From: Blastocatellia bacterium
GTDB lineage: Bacteria; Acidobacteriota; Blastocatellia; Chloracidobacteriales; Chloracidobacteriaceae
Length of the DNA: 64,000 nt
Direction: 5' to 3'
Assembly (NCBI GenBank): GCA_019695185.1
Contig: JAIBAN010000011.1
Span: 1 to 64,000 of the forward strand
Shown: piece by piece, positions 11,603 to 61,100 of the stretch
Numbering within the stretch: position 1 is the first letter of the stretch
Layout of the letters: every line of letters begins with the position of its first letter
Made by a program: the position numbers and the translations under genes
The notes under the pieces: model-generated
Seen by the model: the letters and a program-made list of their open reading frames with translations, nothing else
Databases searched by the model: none
What the model was told of the DNA's origin: nothing

Positions 11603-12262
11603 GTGTTTGGCGATTGGGGGATTTTCCAATCGGTCCATCAGTTCCTCAAGTCTGCCCAGACGCTGGCCCGTTCCAACCTAAACGTTCGAAAGAAGGACGA
11701 TATTTTGTTGCAGCACTTCGGAAATGATAAGCATGGCATTCACCCCTTCATGCATTTCAGGGATGGTTGCCTTCAAAATTTGCCAGTCATTTCTTGCTTC
11801 GAATTGCATTTCTTCAATTTTGATTGTGAGAGATACCTATAGGTGAATTACACCAAGATATAGATTCGGGTTCCGGGTTCCGACTTGATTTCGTTTGAAA
11901 ATTGCTTTGGAAAGATTGGAATCTCAATCCGGAAAAAGGAGGTTCAAACCCGAAACCCGAAACCCTGAACCCGAAAAATGGAACTCCATATCTTGGTGTG
12001 AGCTAGCTATAGTTCTCTGCCAATGCATGAACTTTGGCATCCAGGTCAGCTTAAAGTCCAACCAGAACGTGAATCCGGTTTTCGGTTTTCAGTTGCCATT
12101 CTTCGAACTGGAGTTTTACTTCGGGGCGTCATGTAAGTTCCTTAGATTGCGCTTTTAAGTGGTTAAATCAAGATTGTGACACGCTCAACCGTCATGAGTG
12201 CAGTCCAAAGCTTGTGGGGAATGCAGAATTTAATCTCATGCCATCAGATAGTGAAAACTGGT
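11603..12262. other. Long intergenic region, chromosome side of the attachment site
   Basis: Apart from the inverted element at 11850-11999 I see no supported gene here. Short open frames at 11603-11842 and 11895-12158 lack ribosome sites and recognisable domains, and the second is read through repeat sequence. The next gene (12263-12928) is on the minus strand. Confidence 0.6.
11850..11999. repeat. Inverted heptad element with perfect 12-bp outer arms
   Basis: The outer arms ACACCAAGATAT (11850-11861) and ATATCTTGGTGT (11988-11999) are perfect inverted repeats. Just inside are heptad arms of the GGGTTCC/AACCCGA kind (11864-11881; 11946-11976). The remaining centre of about 65 bases has no coding signal. 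The layout resembles a miniature inverted-repeat element. Confidence 0.75.
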
Positions 12263-17116: not shown

Positions 17117-17189
17117 CCACCTGAAGGCGAAACTCAGAACAGCCGCCTGAAGGCGGAACTCAAAACAGCCGCCTGAAGGCGGAACTCCA
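17117..17189. repeat. Three tandem 26-bp palindromic units (CGCCTGAAGGCG)
   Basis: Three units of the form CGCCTGAAGGCGGAACTC plus about eight bases lie between sigma and anti-sigma genes. Each unit contains the palindrome CGCCTGAAGGCG or CGCCT/AGGCG. The same unit recurs at 23647-23797. Confidence 0.8.
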
Positions 17190-17198
17190 AACCAAGTT

Positions 17199-19885: not shown

Positions 19886-19893
19886 ACAGCCAG

Positions 19894-20138
19894 GCCTGAG
19901 GACTGAGGACACAATCAGGACTGAGGACTGAGGACTGAGGACTGAGGACATAATCAGGACTGAGGACTGAGGACTGAGGACATAATCAGGACTGAGGACT
20001 GAGGACTGAGGACTGAGTGGTAAAATCCAGCTTTGCAGGCCGTCTTTTCTGAGAAGACTGGGAATCAAATCTACCATACTGGGTTTATTCCTCAGTCCTC
20101 AGTCCTCAGTCCTCAGTCCTGATAGCATCCTCAGTCCT
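19894..20138. repeat. Large inverted heptad element, GGACTGA family
   Basis: The left arm (19894-20017) holds about 14 GGACTGA units interrupted by three copies of an AATCAGGAC-type spacer, so it also has a higher-order repeat of about 30 bp. The right arm (20089-20138) holds TCAGTCC units. The centre of about 70 bases is unrelated. The last codon and stop of msrA (GAC TGA) are formed by the right arm. Confidence 0.92.
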
Positions 20139-23646: not shown

Positions 23647-23797
23647 GAGTTCCGCCTTCAGGCGGCGGTTTGGAGTTCCGCCTTCAGGCGGCTGTTCTTG
23701 TATTTGGAAAAATCATCCGCCAAAAAAATGAGCAGCCTCTCAAGGCTGTACTCCAAACCGCCGCTTGAAGGCGGAACTCCAAACAGGCGGAACTCAA
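23647..23797. repeat. Inverted GCCTGAAGGC element
   Basis: Two copies of GTTCCGCCTTCAGGCGGC (23647-23690) are followed by about 60 bases and two inverted copies GCTTGAAGGCGGAACTCC and AGGCGGAACTC (23763-23797). The same 26-bp unit occurs in tandem at 17117-17189. Confidence 0.8.
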
Positions 23798-23801
23798 AAC
23801 T

Positions 23802-24710: not shown

Positions 24711-24717
24711 ACAAACA

Positions 24718-24847
24718 GAGTTCAGGGTTCAGGGTTCAGAGTTTGAAAGAGTTTTCATAAAAATCGAAAACAATCAACCTTTGCTTTTCTGTTCAAATAT
24801 GGAGTATTTAGAACCCTGAATCCTGGACCCTGAACCCTGAGCCCTGA
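24718..24847. repeat. Inverted heptad element, AGGGTTC family
   Basis: The left arm AGTTCAGGGTTCAGGGTTCAG region (24718-24742) and the right arm GAACCCTGAA...CCCTGA (24811-24847) are inverted copies of the same heptad around a 68-base AT-rich centre. The right arm ends six bases before the recD2 start, so it replaces a normal leader. Confidence 0.85.
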
Positions 24848-24852
24848 AGTGA

Positions 24853-27129
24853 ATGAGCACCCCCAATTCATACAACCCGGAACAGGCCAAGACACTTGTC
24901 GGCACGGTCGAACGGGTAACCTACAACAACAGTGAAACAGGCTATACGATTGCCCGCCTGAAGGTCAGCGGCGAACCTGACCCGGTGACGATTGTCGGGC
25001 ATTTTTCTGCGATTACGCCGGGGGAAACGCTCCGGATGGCCGGGTTTTGGGTGACGCATCGGACCTACGGGCCACAATTCAAGGTTGCCAATTACGAAGT
25101 CTGCAAACCTGCGACGATTGCCGGGATTGAAAAATACCTTGGTTCAGGGCTTATCAAAGGCATTGGGCCGGTCACTGCCAAGCGGATTGTCGAGAAATTC
25201 AAGGAAAAAACCCTGGATGTCATTGAGCAGGAAATTGAACGACTCAACGAAGTTCCCGGCATTGCCAAAAAACGTGTTTCGATGATTGCCCGCGCCTGGG
25301 CCGAGCAACAGGCCATCAAGGAAGTCATGCTGTTTTTGCAGTCGCACGGTGTGACCACCCATTTTGCGGTGAAAATTTTCAAGGAATACGGGCCGCTTTC
25401 AATTCAAACCGTTTCGGAAAACCCCTACCGGCTGGCCCAGGACATTTATGGCATCGGTTTCAAAACCGCTGACCAGATTGCCCAAAACCTGGGCATTCGG
25501 GCTGATTCCGAGGAACGTATCCGGGCTGGGTTCAAACACGTTTTACATGAAGCCACCGAAAGCGGACATTGTTACCTGCCTGCCGACGCCCTGGTCACTG
25601 AAGGCGAGAAGGTTCTCAGTATCACCAATCACGACCTGCTGCATTCAGTAGCCGAAAAAATGGCGCGGGAGGATGAAATCAAAGCCGAAAGAGGGTTCAG
25701 GGTTCAGGGTTCAGGGTGCAGGGAAGAAACTCAGTCCTCAGTCCTCAGTCCTCAGTCCTTGGAAGAGTCCTCAGTCCTTTATTATCTGCCCGGTATCTGG
25801 CAGGCCGAGCAAAACGTCGCCCGCTGGTTGCGCGGACTCTTGGCACGTCCGGTTGAGTTTGATGAAAAGAAAGTTGCCGCCTGGCTGGAGCAGTTCACCA
25901 AAAAGGAAAAGCTGGAGCTGAGTGCGGAACAGAAGGAAGCCATCCTGACTGCCAGTCGGCACCGGGTGATGGTGCTGACCGGGGGACCGGGTTGTGGCAA
26001 GACGACGACGCTTCGGGCAATGGTCAAAATGTTCCGTCATTTCAACCGGCGGGTGGAGCTGGCCAGTCCGACCGGACGTGCCGCCCAACGGCTTTCGGAA
26101 GTGGCCGGAGTCGAGGCCCGGACGATTCACCGGTTGCTGGCCTATGACCCGGCTCAACATGGTTTTACCCGCAACGCCGACAACCCGTTGGAAACCGATG
26201 TGGTGATTGTGGACGAAGCCTCGATGCTGGATGTGCTGCTGGCTTCAAACCTGCTCAAGGCCATTCCAACCATAGCCCAACTGGTCTTGGTCGGAGATGT
26301 GGACCAGCTTCCTTCGGTGGGGCCAGGCCGGGTCCTTTCCGACATCATCAATTCCGATGTGATTCCGGTGATACGGCTGACCCAGGTTTTCCGCCAGGCC
26401 CAGGGCAGCGTCATCATCACCAACGCTCATCGCATCCGTGAAGGGCATTATCCGAAACTGATTGAACCCGGTTCGGTGGAGAACACCGATTGTTATTACA
26501 TTCCCGCCGAAGAGCCCGAAGACATCCACCGGTTGCTCATCAATGCCGTCACCCGGAGTTTGCCGAAACGGTTCGGCTACGACCCCTTGACGGACATCCA
26601 GGTCCTGACCCCGATGAACCGCAGCAGCGTTGGGGCGGCTGAACTCAACCTTCGCCTGCAACAGCATCTCAATCCGCCGGCCCCGGACAAGGAACAGATA
26701 GAGCGCATGGGGCGCATTTTCCGTGAAGGCGACAAGGTGATTCAAAAGGTGAATAACTATAACCTGGAGGTTTTCAACGGCGATGTGGGATTGATTCGCC
26801 AGATTGACACCGAGGACCACACTTGCCTGATAGAGTTTGGGGACCGGGATGTGACGTATGATTGGGCTGATTTGAATGAACTGGGGCACGGGTTTGCCAT
26901 GTCCGTCCACAAAAGCCAGGGGTCGGAATATCCGGCCGTTGTGATTATTTTGCACACCCAGGCCTGGATGGTTCTGAGCCGGAATTTGATTTACACCGCC
27001 CTGACCCGTGCCAAGAAAACCGCTGTCCTGTTAGGCACAAAAAAAGCCCTGGGGGCAGCCATGCGCAAAATCGAAGCAGGCACCCGCAATACCCGGCTGG
27101 CAGAAATTTTACCTTTGCCGATTGAATGA
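24853..27129 (+). CDS. recD2: RecD2 ATP-dependent DNA helicase
   Basis: The 758-residue protein has the RecD2 layout: an OB-like N-terminus (VGTVERVTYNNSETGYTIARL), helix-hairpin-helix segments (SGLIKGIGPVTAKRI), then the SF1B helicase core with Walker A GGPGCGKTTT (Lys383), Walker B VVIVDEASMLD, LVGDVDQLPSVGPG, and C-terminal SVHKSQGSEYPAVV and YTALTRAKK. It unwinds 5' to 3' and acts in recombination or mismatch repair outside the RecBCD complex. Residues about 280-309 (FRVQGSG, then QSSVLSPQS) are translated from two heptad arrays between the hairpin region and the helicase core. The gene immediately follows a heptad array and lacks a usual ribosome site. Confidence 0.95.
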   Translation: MSTPNSYNPEQAKTLVGTVERVTYNNSETGYTIARLKVSGEPDPVTIVGHFSAITPGETLRMAGFWVTHRTYGPQFKVANYEVCKPATIAGIEKYLGSGLIKGIGPVTAKRIVEKFKEKTLDVIEQEIERLNEVPGIAKKRVSMIARAWAEQQAIKEVMLFLQSHGVTTHFAVKIFKEYGPLSIQTVSENPYRLAQDIYGIGFKTADQIAQNLGIRADSEERIRAGFKHVLHEATESGHCYLPADALVTEGEKVLSITNHDLLHSVAEKMAREDEIKAERGFRVQGSGCREETQSSVLSPQSLEESSVLYYLPGIWQAEQNVARWLRGLLARPVEFDEKKVAAWLEQFTKKEKLELSAEQKEAILTASRHRVMVLTGGPGCGKTTTLRAMVKMFRHFNRRVELASPTGRAAQRLSEVAGVEARTIHRLLAYDPAQHGFTRNADNPLETDVVIVDEASMLDVLLASNLLKAIPTIAQLVLVGDVDQLPSVGPGRVLSDIINSDVIPVIRLTQVFRQAQGSVIITNAHRIREGHYPKLIEPGSVENTDCYYIPAEEPEDIHRLLINAVTRSLPKRFGYDPLTDIQVLTPMNRSSVGAAELNLRLQQHLNPPAPDKEQIERMGRIFREGDKVIQKVNNYNLEVFNGDVGLIRQIDTEDHTCLIEFGDRDVTYDWADLNELGHGFAMSVHKSQGSEYPAVVIILHTQAWMVLSRNLIYTALTRAKKTAVLLGTKKALGAAMRKIEAGTRNTRLAEILPLPIE
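25692..25778. repeat. Two heptad arrays inside recD2 (AGGGTTC and TCAGTCC)
   Basis: Four AGGGTTC units (25692-25723) are followed by a six-base gap and by TCAGTCC units (25730-25778). Both are read in stop-free orientation, giving the peptides FRVQGSG and QSSVLSP. The insert lies between conserved RecD2 domains, so it is probably tolerated as a loop. Confidence 0.85.
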
Positions 27130-27742: not shown

Positions 27743-27751
27743 TAACCAAAG

Positions 27752-27916
27752 TCTAGGGAGTCTGGGGAGTCCGGGGAGTCTGGGGTGTCACTTGGCATTT
27801 TTGTCATCTTGTCACGCTGTCACCCTGTCAGGGTTTGGATTCCCAAGACTTCCAAGACTCCCAAGACTCCCAAGACTCTCAAGACTCCCAGGACTCTCCA
27901 GACTCCCAAGACTCTC
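27752..27916. repeat. Inverted 9-mer element (AGTCTGGGG / ACTCCCAAG)
   Basis: The left arm (27752-27783) has three to four AGTCTGGGG-type 9-mers; the right arm (27839-27916) has about eight ACTCCCAAG-type 9-mers, roughly inverse. The centre also repeats TGTCACCC-type words. The unit is 9 bp, not 7, so it is a variant of the same architecture. Its right arm runs to the stop of the next gene. Confidence 0.75.
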
Positions 27917-28199
27917 AAACCTCTTCGTCTTTTTTCCCCTGGGCGACATCCAGATAGCTTTCTTTGGCACGGATTTTATGCGCCATGTCGCTCATGGTTC
28001 CTTCAAGCCCGCCTAAATCACTCATAAAATTGACCAGCGGCTGGGGCATGGAACCCAAAGCTGCCGAAGACTGGTCAATTCGACTGCGCTGGTCGGTTAA
28101 ATCCGCAAAAATCAAGGCTTCATCTTCCGTAAGCGTGCCTTTGTATTTTTTGAGGGCAAGTTGACGGTACAGGGCTTCCAAATCTTCGGATAATTCCAT
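27915..28199 (-). CDS. Small helical hypothetical protein
   Basis: The ATG at 28199 (MELSEDLEALYRQLA) has an AAGGAG ribosome site, so this 94-residue start is preferred over the longer frame to 28538. The product is helical and acidic, with a GTLTEDEALIFADLTDQRSRI region and a Gly-rich turn (LGGLEGTMSD). It is divergent from the lipoprotein gene at 28309. No family recognised. Confidence 0.65.
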   Translation of the reverse strand: MELSEDLEALYRQLALKKYKGTLTEDEALIFADLTDQRSRIDQSSAALGSMPQPLVNFMSDLGGLEGTMSDMAHKIRAKESYLDVAQGKKDEEV

Positions 28200-30436: not shown

Positions 30437-30538
30437 AGGACTGAGGACTGAGGACTGAGGACTGAGAAAATCAATCTCAAGAAAGCGTAAAAGCTGCAAG
30501 GGTTGTTTCTCAGTCCTCAGTCCTCAGTCCTCAGTCCT
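30437..30538. repeat. Inverted heptad element, GGACTGA family
   Basis: The left arm GGACTGA x4 (30437-30466) and right arm TCAGTCC x4 (30509-30538) enclose 42 unrelated bases. The right arm abuts the stop of the TPR gene at 30541. Confidence 0.92.
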
Positions 30539-46270: not shown

Positions 46271-46272
<2 letters not shown>

Positions 46273-46396
46273 GGTTCAGGGTTCAGGAGGTTCAATTTCT
46301 GGATTTTGGAAGCTTGAGTCAAGAAAACCTTCTGTTTCAGGAATTTTCTTCCCAAACCCTGAACCCTGAACCCTGAACCCTGAACCCTGAACCCTC
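46271..46396. repeat. Inverted heptad element in the mreB-mreC gap (GAACCCT family)
   Basis: The left arm AGGGTTCAGGGTTCAGG (46271-46288) and the right arm GAACCCT x6 (46354-46396) flank 65 unrelated bases. The right arm ends three bases before the mreC start codon. Confidence 0.9.
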
Positions 46397-46399
46397 AAG

Positions 46400-47254
46400 A
46401 TGAAACCTACCGAATCACAAAACCGCGCTCCAATTGTTTTTATTGCTTTACTGGTGGCGCAGTTGTTAACGATGTCGTTGCACGCGCGGGCACAGGCGCA
46501 ACAACAATCGCTTTCCCGGACGGCCCTGCTGGCTGTTTTATATCCACTTCAAAAAGGAACGGCTTGGGTCACATCCGGTATTGGCGGGGTCTGGTATGGG
46601 TATCTCAACCTGCGTGGAGTGCGGGGCGAAAATCAGCGGTTGCAAGCCGAAATCAATCGGTTGCAGCAGGAACGGATGCTGGTGCAGGAAGAGGTTGCCG
46701 CTGCTCGCCGATACCGGGAATTGTTGAAGCTCAAGGAAAGCGTGGGGGTTCCATCTGTCGCCGCCACTGTTATCGGCAGGGATGGGAATCCCTGGTATCA
46801 GCAGATTGTGATTGACCAGGGCCTGATTGCCGGGGTCCGTTTATATCAGATTGTTATTACACCCCAGGGAGTGGTGGGCCGGGTGGTTGGCGTGGGGCCG
46901 ACCTGTGCCATCGTGCAGTTGATTACGGACGGCACCTCGGGGGTCGGTGCCATGTTGAGTGATTCACGGGTCAACGGTGAGCTCAAAGGGCGCAATGGGC
47001 CACAGTGCCAATTGGCCAGCATTACCGGGCTGGTCAATGTCCGGGAAGGGGAGGCAATACTCACTTCCGGGTTGGAAGGTTGGTACCCCAAGGGAATGTT
47101 GCTGGGCTATGTTTCCCAGGTCCAATTGGGGTCGGGGGCTGCTTTACATCAAATCACAGTCCAGCCTGCCGCCCAATTGGACCGACTTGAAGAAGTTCTA
47201 GTGTTGTTGGCCAAGCCGCCAGACATTCAAATAACCGAAAGTGTGAAAAAATAA
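46400..47254 (+). CDS. mreC: Rod shape-determining protein MreC
   Basis: The 284-residue protein has an N-terminal membrane span (about 11-32), a coiled-coil segment with regular Leu/Gln (RGENQRLQAEINRLQQERMLVQEEV, shown in part), and the double beta-barrel domain containing VIGRDGNPWYQQIVIDQG, TPQGVVGRVVGVGP and SVNGELKGRNGPQC-like strands. MreC anchors the elongation complex in the periplasm. The gene starts three bases after a heptad array with no normal ribosome site, suggesting coupling to or regulation by the array. Confidence 0.95.
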   Translation: MKPTESQNRAPIVFIALLVAQLLTMSLHARAQAQQQSLSRTALLAVLYPLQKGTAWVTSGIGGVWYGYLNLRGVRGENQRLQAEINRLQQERMLVQEEVAAARRYRELLKLKESVGVPSVAATVIGRDGNPWYQQIVIDQGLIAGVRLYQIVITPQGVVGRVVGVGPTCAIVQLITDGTSGVGAMLSDSRVNGELKGRNGPQCQLASITGLVNVREGEAILTSGLEGWYPKGMLLGYVSQVQLGSGAALHQITVQPAAQLDRLEEVLVLLAKPPDIQITESVKK

Positions 47255-47402
47255 TTGAGAATTGAGCCGGTGATGCCTGCGGAATGGTGACCTAACTGCA
47301 AATTTGGTGAAAAAAACACCAAAGGACACATTCTCCGGTTTTCAAAGGTAACCGGAAACCGATTTCCAGATTTCTCAATTCTCAATTCTCAGTTCTCAAT
47401 TC
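47252..47402. repeat. Inverted heptad element in the mreC-mreD gap (AGAATTG family)
   Basis: The left arm AATTGAGAATTGAG (47252-47267) and the right arm TCTCAATTCTCAATTCTCAG... (47372-47402) flank about 100 bases that include a short TTTGGTG/CACCAAA hairpin. The heptad differs from the neighbouring gaps. Confidence 0.85.
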
Positions 47403-57019: not shown

Positions 57020-57156
57020 GAATTGAGAATTGAGAATTGAGAATTGAACTGAATGGTTCCCCGGCAGTTTGGCAATCGAATGTTCAACTTGTTGTGTGCA
57101 GACAATCGAATTCTCAATTCTCAATTCTCAATTCTCAATTCTCAATTCTCAATTCT
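57020..57156. repeat. Inverted heptad element, AGAATTG family
   Basis: The left arm AGAATTG x4 (57020-57047) and right arm TCAATTC x7 (57106-57156) flank 58 unrelated bases. Both arms, read inward from either side, contain TGA in every frame. Confidence 0.92.
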
Positions 57157-59842: not shown

Positions 59843-59986
59843 AGGACTGAGGACTGAGGACTGAGACAGACCAACGGGTTCGCTGCCTCTCACCGGAAAG
59901 ACCAAAAATTTCAACTCCTGAATTCCTCGCTTGACCGTTGGTAGATTACCGGAAAACTGATGAAAAACTCAGTCCTCAGTCTTCAG
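59843..59986. repeat. Inverted heptad element, GGACTGA family
   Basis: GGACTGA x3 (59843-59865) and TCAGTCC/TTCAG units (59968-59986) flank 102 bases containing their own ACCAACGG/CCGTTGGT inverted pair. The right arm ends 18 bases before the RDD gene start. Confidence 0.88.
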
Positions 59987-60924: not shown

Positions 60925-60925
60925 A

Positions 60926-61100
60926 GAGTTGAGAATTGAGAATTGAGAATTGAGAGAATTGAGAATTGAGAATTGAGAATTGAGCAAACCTGCTCCCGCA
61001 GAGGCCATTCGTCTCAAAGGCCACATCAGGGTTTTGAAACCCCAAACCAAACAGTTGCCTCGTTCTCAATTCTCAATTCTCAATTCTCAATTCTCAATTC
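60926..61100. repeat. Inverted heptad element, AGAATTG family
   Basis: The left arm AGAATTG-type units (60926-60984, seven or more, with one AGAGAATTG jog) and right arm TCAATTC units (61063-61100) flank about 78 bases. It separates the RDD gene from the SpoIIE-type gene. Confidence 0.92.

What the first reader, a model, noticed from the sequence alone, without database searches (positions are those of the whole stretch)
19894..20138. Recurrent inverted heptad-repeat elements between genes, several sequence families
At least nine gaps contain two arrays of a 7-bp unit in inverted orientation around 40-110 bases of unrelated sequence (11850, 19894, 24718, 30437, 46271, 47252, 57020, 59843, 60926). 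Families are GGACTGA, AGGGTTC/GAACCCT, AGAATTG, with looser AAATCGC and AAAACTC arrays. The arms are conserved within a family but the centres are not, and different families share the same architecture. This differs from REP/ERIC elements, whose sequence is conserved, and is closest to the heptameric STRR repeats known from cyanobacteria. It may be an undescribed kind of miniature element or intercistronic structure.
Basis: partly seen in the sequence, partly recalled or inferred. Interest (0 to 1): 0.85.

Follow-up and report, generated by a model that had tools for sequence, protein, structure and literature searches.

The report
Hairpin elements with tandem-heptad arms
Between hundreds of genes this acidobacterium carries a small hairpin-forming piece of DNA whose two arms are built from the same 7-letter word repeated several times; the same arrangement was seen before in Xanthomonas, but here it comes in many different words, even a 9-letter one, and some copies have clearly been copied to new places.

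Summary
In 1.62 Mb of this 8.33-Mb acidobacterial genome, 124 of 178 neighbouring period-7 arrays form inverted same-unit pairs and 1 a same-strand pair (shuffles: mean 17, maximum 30). The inward strand never varies within a unit family (GAGGACT, GAGAATT, CAGGGTT, others). Elements start within a few bases of stop codons, favour convergent gaps (25%) and avoid divergent ones (4%). A 9-bp family has the same design (12 inverted, 0 same).

'Centres not conserved' is only mostly right: the nine listed centres are unique in the genome, but about a fifth of sampled centres have a match elsewhere, and one pair on different contigs is 97.6% identical with homology ending at the arms. So some elements were copied as units. 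No target-site duplication or RAYT link was found.

The kind is not undescribed: Rehm et al. 2015 (PMC4692102) reported inverted heptad pairs with the same polarity and stop-codon preference in Xanthomonas and proposed G-quadruplexes. Here GAGAATT arms cannot form quadruplexes, so those cannot be the common basis. I class it as a new multi-family variant of a known kind: REPIN-like or foldback-like mini-elements. The mobilising enzyme is unknown.

The parts
11865..11976 (.). Element, CCGGGTT family; arms 11865-11882 and 11946-11976, centre 63 bp; an outer imperfect inverted repeat 11831-11864 / 11985-12018
19892..20138 (.). Index element, GAGGACT family, between convergent genes (SIMPL-family gene ending 19885, MsrA gene ending 20131). 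Left arm is four array blocks (19892-20017) split by ACAATC/ATAATC, right arm 20089-20138, centre 71 bp
   Evidence: flanking genes by Pfam
24716..24848 (.). Element, CAGGGTT family, in a divergent gap; the orthologous gap in relative G003 also holds a CAGGGTT pair
25692..25759 (.). Mixed-family pair (CAGGGTT arm then CTCAGTC arm) in frame inside a helicase-like gene; encodes about 20 extra residues (..GFRVQGSGCREETQSSVLSPQSLEES..) absent from the G003 orthologue
27750..27918 (.). 9-bp-unit element, inward unit AGTCTKGGG, same inverted design, between convergent genes
30437..30538 (.). Element, GAGGACT family, perfect 33-bp arms, 36 bp between the arms
46271..46395 (.). Element, CAGGGTT family; its first two bases complete the TAG stop of the upstream gene, its end lies 4 bp before the next ATG; absent from the orthologous gap in G003
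47253..47402 (.). Element, GAGAATT family, weak two-unit left arm (47253-47266), right arm 47372-47402
57020..57156 (.). Element, GAGAATT family, 4 bp after a stop codon, arms 28 and 48 bp
59843..59986 (.). Element, GAGGACT family, arms 23 and 19 bp, centre 102 bp
60925..61100 (.). Element, GAGAATT family, directly after a stop codon; the orthologous gap in G003 has inverted arrays of a different unit (AATTATG)

Best explanation
These are dispersed, non-coding, hairpin-forming mini-elements of about 100-200 bp: two arms of 2-6 tandem short units (7 bp, or 9 bp) in inverted orientation around a 40-110 bp centre. They work like REPINs or foldback elements. The two-armed unit is occasionally copied to a new site, is kept mostly where a transcript ends just behind a stop codon, and is then transcribed as a long 3'-untranslated stem-loop. 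Shown: inverted pairing, fixed polarity, stop-codon positioning, fixed outer end of the GAGGACT arms, copying of arms plus centre for some elements, no target-site duplication. Inferred: that most elements arose by the same copying and their centres then drifted; that arms stay alike because tandem slippage and arm-to-arm templating keep repairing them; that the element is transcribed, and that its stem-loop is tolerated, or used to end or protect transcripts, rather than encoding anything. The enzyme that copies them is not identified.
For: Pairing and polarity: 124 inverted, 1 same-strand, every family with one polarity, far above shuffles; 13 inverted and 0 same in further genomes sampled: G021, G014, G037 and two single loci, one of them a Bacteroidetes contig. 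Same design with 9-bp units: 12 to 0. Unpaired arrays: 54 of 161 have a sub-threshold partner on the inward side, 5 on the outward side. Placement: occupancy 24.6% convergent, 14% codirectional, 4.1% divergent; in codirectional gaps closer to the stop in 65 and to the start in 8, also when the gap is wide. Defined end: outermost phase AGGACTG in 59 of 84 paired and 38 of 51 single arms, 1 in 7 expected; 61 of 131 exact runs are (AGGACTG)nAG. Unit copying: elements at C69:68213 and C4:51121 have 97.6% identical centres, homology ending at the arms; a CAGGGTT subfamily shares a core (..TTTTGAATGGACAATTGACAAT..AGAGCTTCAAATTTCCTGATATTYGAAA..); E014/E015, E053/E054, E061/E072, E050/E114 are further pairs. 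Gap gained or lost: C69:72577-72740 has a 147-bp element (gap 162), against 18 bp in G003, about 60 bp in G001 and about 50 bp in another relative.
Against: All nine listed window centres and about 80% of the sampled centres have no detectable relative, so unit copying is proved for a minority only. Shared centres could also arise by gene conversion between elements that already have matching arms. No transposase is linked, and no target-site duplication is seen. About a dozen gaps have arms of different families that cannot pair well yet keep the polarity, which a pure hairpin model does not explain. No transcript data are available here.
Confidence: 0.5

Rival explanations
1. Arms grow in place. 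A short tandem array arises next to a gene end by slippage; replication template switching at the resulting imperfect palindrome builds and corrects a matching inverted array about 60 bp away. The centre is simply the old intergenic spacer and nothing moves.
For: Most centres are unique. Residual gap (about 20 bp) plus centre (about 66 bp) is close to the median array-free codirectional gap (80 and 58 bp). The same orthologous gap can hold arrays of different units in two genera. The Nostoc P6b stem shows class replacement on both sides (PMC4476775).
Against: Full centres shared by elements at unrelated sites, with homology ending at the arms; fixed outer phase of GAGGACT arms at many sites; the same three units dominating all over the genome; one gap with a complete extra element; arm lengths uncorrelated (r = -0.02).
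Confidence: 0.27
2. Functional 3'-end structures selected gene by gene (termination, mRNA 3' protection, or insulation of convergent genes), whatever their origin.
For: Stop-codon hugging, convergent enrichment, divergent depletion; very stable predicted RNA stems (median -62 kcal/mol); in Xanthomonas most such repeats are transcribed (PMC4692102).
Against: No strong T-tract outside the arms (25 of 247 ends with at least 5 T in 8, against 4% in controls), so not ordinary intrinsic terminators; elements absent at many orthologous gaps and SAGRRYT arrays absent from the small-genome genus of the same family; some lie in operon-like tight gaps or inside genes.
Confidence: 0.15
3. G-quadruplex elements, as proposed for GGGNATC repeats in Xanthomonas and Nostoc.
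For: Same polarity and placement as the published repeats; 69 of 97 CAGGGTT arms have four G3 tracts.
Against: 0 of 98 GAGAATT arms can form even a two-quartet structure and 0 of 142 GAGGACT arms a three-quartet one, yet architecture and polarity are the same.
Confidence: 0.04
4. REPINs proper, mobilised by a RAYT (Y1) transposase.
For: Same two-arm, variable-centre design and size (PMC3116915); G000 has 11 Y1_Tnp matches.
Against: Sequences next to the Y1 genes carry other palindromes (e.g. GGGCTTGCGCCC, GCTGCTTCGCAGC), not heptad pairs; Y1 gene number does not track heptad number over 58 relatives; no single conserved arm sequence.
Confidence: 0.04

Closest known systems
GGGAATC / GGGGA(C/T)T heptad repeats of Xanthomonas and Nostoc (Rehm et al. 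2015, PMC4692102)
   Same: 7-bp units, 2-26 copies, dispersed, intergenic; inverted pairs (70 in Xcc, 75 in Xac); G-rich strand sense after the stop codon and antisense before the start codon; depleted between divergent genes; overlap with stop codons
   Different: Here many unit families in one genome, including units that cannot form quadruplexes and a 9-bp unit; about 76 strict pairs per Mb (roughly 640 extrapolated); fixed array ends and copied centres seen; different phylum
REPINs (REP doublets, PMC3116915)
   Same: Inverted arms conserved, spacer variable, hairpin forming, extragenic, singlets look like decayed doublets
   Different: Arms are tandem short-unit arrays of variable length, several unit families, no RAYT linkage found
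Foldback transposons of eukaryotes (from memory)
   Same: Terminal inverted repeats made of short tandem repeats, variable in length, around variable centres
   Different: Eukaryotic, far larger; no homology tested
STRR heptad repeats of cyanobacteria (Mazel 1990, cited in PMC4692102) and TAACTGA repeats of Beggiatoaceae (PMC4679880)
   Same: Intergenic 7-bp tandem arrays next to genes, similar units (TAACTGA = GATAACT resembles GAGGACT)
   Different: Mainly direct arrays; one inverted repeat among 170 sets in the Beggiatoaceae genome; only a few pairs in Nostoc 7120
P6b stem of the Nostoc tRNA-Leu group I intron (PMC4476775)
   Same: Stem built on heptad motifs, with class switching at constant architecture
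   Different: Inside an intron; a single locus
BrickBuilt MITE of Porphyromonas gingivalis (PMC4596501)
   Same: Intergenic miniature element containing a tandem repeat
   Different: 23-bp repeat inside the element, not forming the two inverted arms; 19 copies

Membership tests
Xanthomonas-type G-rich heptad repeats | 7-bp tandem units, intergenic, dispersed | tested here: met
   (450 of 502 arrays intergenic)
Xanthomonas-type G-rich heptad repeats | G-rich strand sense after stop / antisense before start; depleted in divergent gaps | tested here: met
   all pairs polar; 106 of 123 single arrays read away from the nearest gene; divergent 4.1%; inward strand 36% G, 10% C
Xanthomonas-type G-rich heptad repeats | Quadruplex-capable unit GGGNATC or similar | tested here: not met
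   only the CAGGGTT family is capable of three-quartet structures; GAGAATT not at all
REPIN | Two inverted arms, variable centre, hairpin | tested here: met
REPIN | Conserved REP arm linked to a RAYT gene | tested here: not met
MITE (DDE transposon derived) | Fixed terminal inverted repeats | tested here: inconclusive
   Fixed outer phase for GAGGACT, less so for the other families
MITE (DDE transposon derived) | Target-site duplication | tested here: not met
   direct flank matches at or below expectation
MITE (DDE transposon derived) | Related autonomous element in the genome | not tested
   Only Y1 transposases were searched
Intrinsic terminator | GC stem followed by a T tract | tested here: not met
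   weak T enrichment only; median loop 66 nt
Known structured RNA | Match to an Rfam family | tested here: not met
   no match in the window
STRR | 7-bp tandem arrays of cyanobacteria | tested here: inconclusive
   Unit length met, organism not a cyanobacterium; whether cyanobacterial STRR obey the inverted rule could not be tested (no records)

The most novel reading that the evidence does not exclude
A class of bacterial foldback mini-transposon whose recognised ends are short tandem repeats rather than a fixed sequence: an unknown enzyme recognises inward-facing G-rich arrays of short units (7 or 9 bp), so the unit sequence can drift into new families while the architecture keeps spreading, with insertion directed to the ends of genes.
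Probability: 0.2. Interest if true: 0.85.

Novelty: new variant of a known kind. Interest (0 to 1): 0.55.

Why it matters
It shows that the inverted-heptad architecture reported in Xanthomonas exists in another phylum at high density and in units that cannot form quadruplexes, so the published quadruplex reading cannot be the common explanation. Unit family, and even unit length, can change while arm polarity, spacing and placement stay. That makes the origin (mobile unit or in-place growth) directly testable by sequencing close strains, and offers a natural system for how inverted repeats arise and persist in bacterial genomes.

Tried and rejected
RAYT link: looked for heptad pairs beside Y1 genes and for co-variation over 58 genomes, found neither. 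Target-site duplications: none. Classical intrinsic terminators: no strong T tract. Rfam: no hit. Paralogous regions with and without an element: none found in the sample. Centre as old intergenic spacer: G003 gap lengths for the four paired-element gaps without arrays there (134, 18, 75, 81 bp) do not decide. Cyanobacterial plasmid records for an STRR comparison were not in the collections. Assembly artefact: judged unlikely, as arms differ in length, centres are mostly unique, and the pattern recurs in other genomes.

Full report
Setting. The window is contig C69:1-64000 of an 8.33-Mb, 222-contig genome. A protein beside the index element finds Acidobacteriota and Blastocatellia metagenome-assembled genomes best. 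The organism is therefore taken as an acidobacterium, not a cyanobacterium.

Observation. All nine listed gaps carry inverted arrays of a 7-bp unit. At 19892-20138 the left arm is four blocks of AGGACTG units and the right arm its reverse complement, filling the gap between two convergent genes, a SIMPL-family gene and a methionine sulfoxide reductase gene. Period 7 is by far the commonest tandem period in the genome sample.

Is it more than chance? In 1.62 Mb I found 502 merged arrays. Of 178 neighbouring arrays within 250 bp, 124 are inverted with the same unit and one is same-strand. Shuffling units and strands gives a mean of 17 for each and at most 30 inverted. Within each family the left arm always has the same strand: GAGGACT 45, GAGAATT 36, CAGGGTT 18, GCGATTT 5, GCCATTT 3, GAGTTTT 3 and rarer ones. 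Arms read inward are 36% G and 10% C. Unpaired arrays read away from the nearest gene in 106 of 123 cases, and a third have a degraded partner on the inward side (54 of 161, against 5 on the outward side). That is about 76 pairs per Mb, extrapolated to roughly 640 in the genome.

Not only heptads. A 9-bp family (AGTCTTGGG inward) forms nearly all of 12 inverted period-9 pairs, with no same-strand pair; spacers are 23-79 bp, and one lies in the window at 27750-27918. No other period from 4 to 21 forms pairs in this genome.

Placement. Arms begin mostly within about 10 bp of stop codons, or supply the stop codon themselves (TGA of the GAGGACT and GAGAATT arrays, T+AG, T+AA). Convergent gaps are occupied most (24.6%), divergent least (4.1%). 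In codirectional gaps the element is closer to the stop in 65 cases and to the start in 8, and this holds in wide gaps. Some arrays lie inside genes; at 25692-25759 a mixed pair adds about 20 residues to a helicase-like protein relative to the G003 orthologue.

Fixed ends. For GAGGACT arrays the outermost phase is AGGACTG in 59 of 84 paired and 38 of 51 single arms, usually preceded by C or A; the commonest exact run is (AGGACTG)nAG. That is not expected of arrays that arose independently by slippage at each site.

Are whole elements copied? For 23 of 124 sampled elements the centre matches another place in the 19% of the genome sampled; one of these (E028) is a separate dispersed repeat. The clearest copy pair is on different contigs, with 97.6% identical centres, arms of different length, and homology ending at the arms. 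A CAGGGTT subfamily shares a core of about 60 bp over many sites. Two pairs of copies flank a single gene each in inverted orientation. The nine listed window centres, in contrast, are unique in the whole genome. So copying is shown for a minority and inferred for the rest.

Relatives. G003, another genus of the same family, has 1339 matches to the SAGRRYT triple, mainly CAGGGTT among those listed; G001 has 99, mainly GAGAATT; the small-genome genus has none. In a phylum sample 53 of 297 genomes have matches, patchily. Samples of further genomes and loci show 13 inverted pairs and no same-strand pair. In 28 orthologous gaps compared, G000 alone has arrays in nine, both have them in four, G003 alone in three. 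In one shared gap the units differ (GGACTGA against AGTGGTT), and one gap of 162 bp with a 147-bp element is 18 bp in G003.

What moves them? No target-site duplication. Eleven Y1 transposase matches exist, but their flanks carry other palindromes, and their numbers do not follow heptad numbers. Other transposases were not searched. The mobiliser is unknown, and gene conversion or template switching may do part of the work.

Comparison. Rehm et al. (PMC4692102) described GGGAATC heptads in Xanthomonas with inverted pairs, the same polarity, the same stop-codon preference, transcription of most repeats, and conserved positions between two species, and proposed quadruplexes. In this genome 0 of 98 GAGAATT arms can form a quadruplex while obeying the same rules. 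The design also resembles REPINs (PMC3116915) but fails the RAYT criterion. TAACTGA repeats (PMC4679880) are mainly direct arrays. The Nostoc P6b stem (PMC4476775) shows that a two-sided heptad stem can switch unit class as a whole.

Limits. Gene calls come from a simple home-made predictor: stops are exact, starts approximate. Only 19% of the genome was read. The closest relative is another genus, so intergenic alignment is not possible. No expression data were available. Strict pairs are undercounted because degraded arms fall below the threshold.

Noticed in passing
window 17120-17192, 23647-23800: A separate dispersed, partly palindromic 26-bp repeat (GAGTTCCGCCTTCAGGCGGCGGTTTG / CCTGAAGGCGGAACTCAAAACAGCCG), recurring at many sites in the sampled genome.
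   Followed up: partly
L175, L176 (flanks of Y1 transposase genes): RAYT-type genes of this genome are flanked by their own tandemly repeated palindromes (GGGCTTGCGCCC.., GCTGCTTCGCAGC), apparently the true REP family here.
   Followed up: partly
L089:5635-6831 (minus strand): A protein with a caspase-like domain and a C-terminal Agenet/Tudor-knot domain, both usually thought of as eukaryotic, flanked by two inverted copies of one GAGGACT element.
   Followed up: no
window 25692-25759: Heptad arms of two different families inserted in frame in a helicase-like gene, adding a linker of about 20 residues.
   Followed up: partly
G003 contigs C3 and C70 (L061, L065): In G003 an 8/9-bp unit (GGAGACAA..) also forms inverted array pairs.
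   Followed up: partly
L023:1658-2548: Gene flanked by two inverted copies (81% identical centres) of a GAGGACT element; no Pfam match.
   Followed up: no
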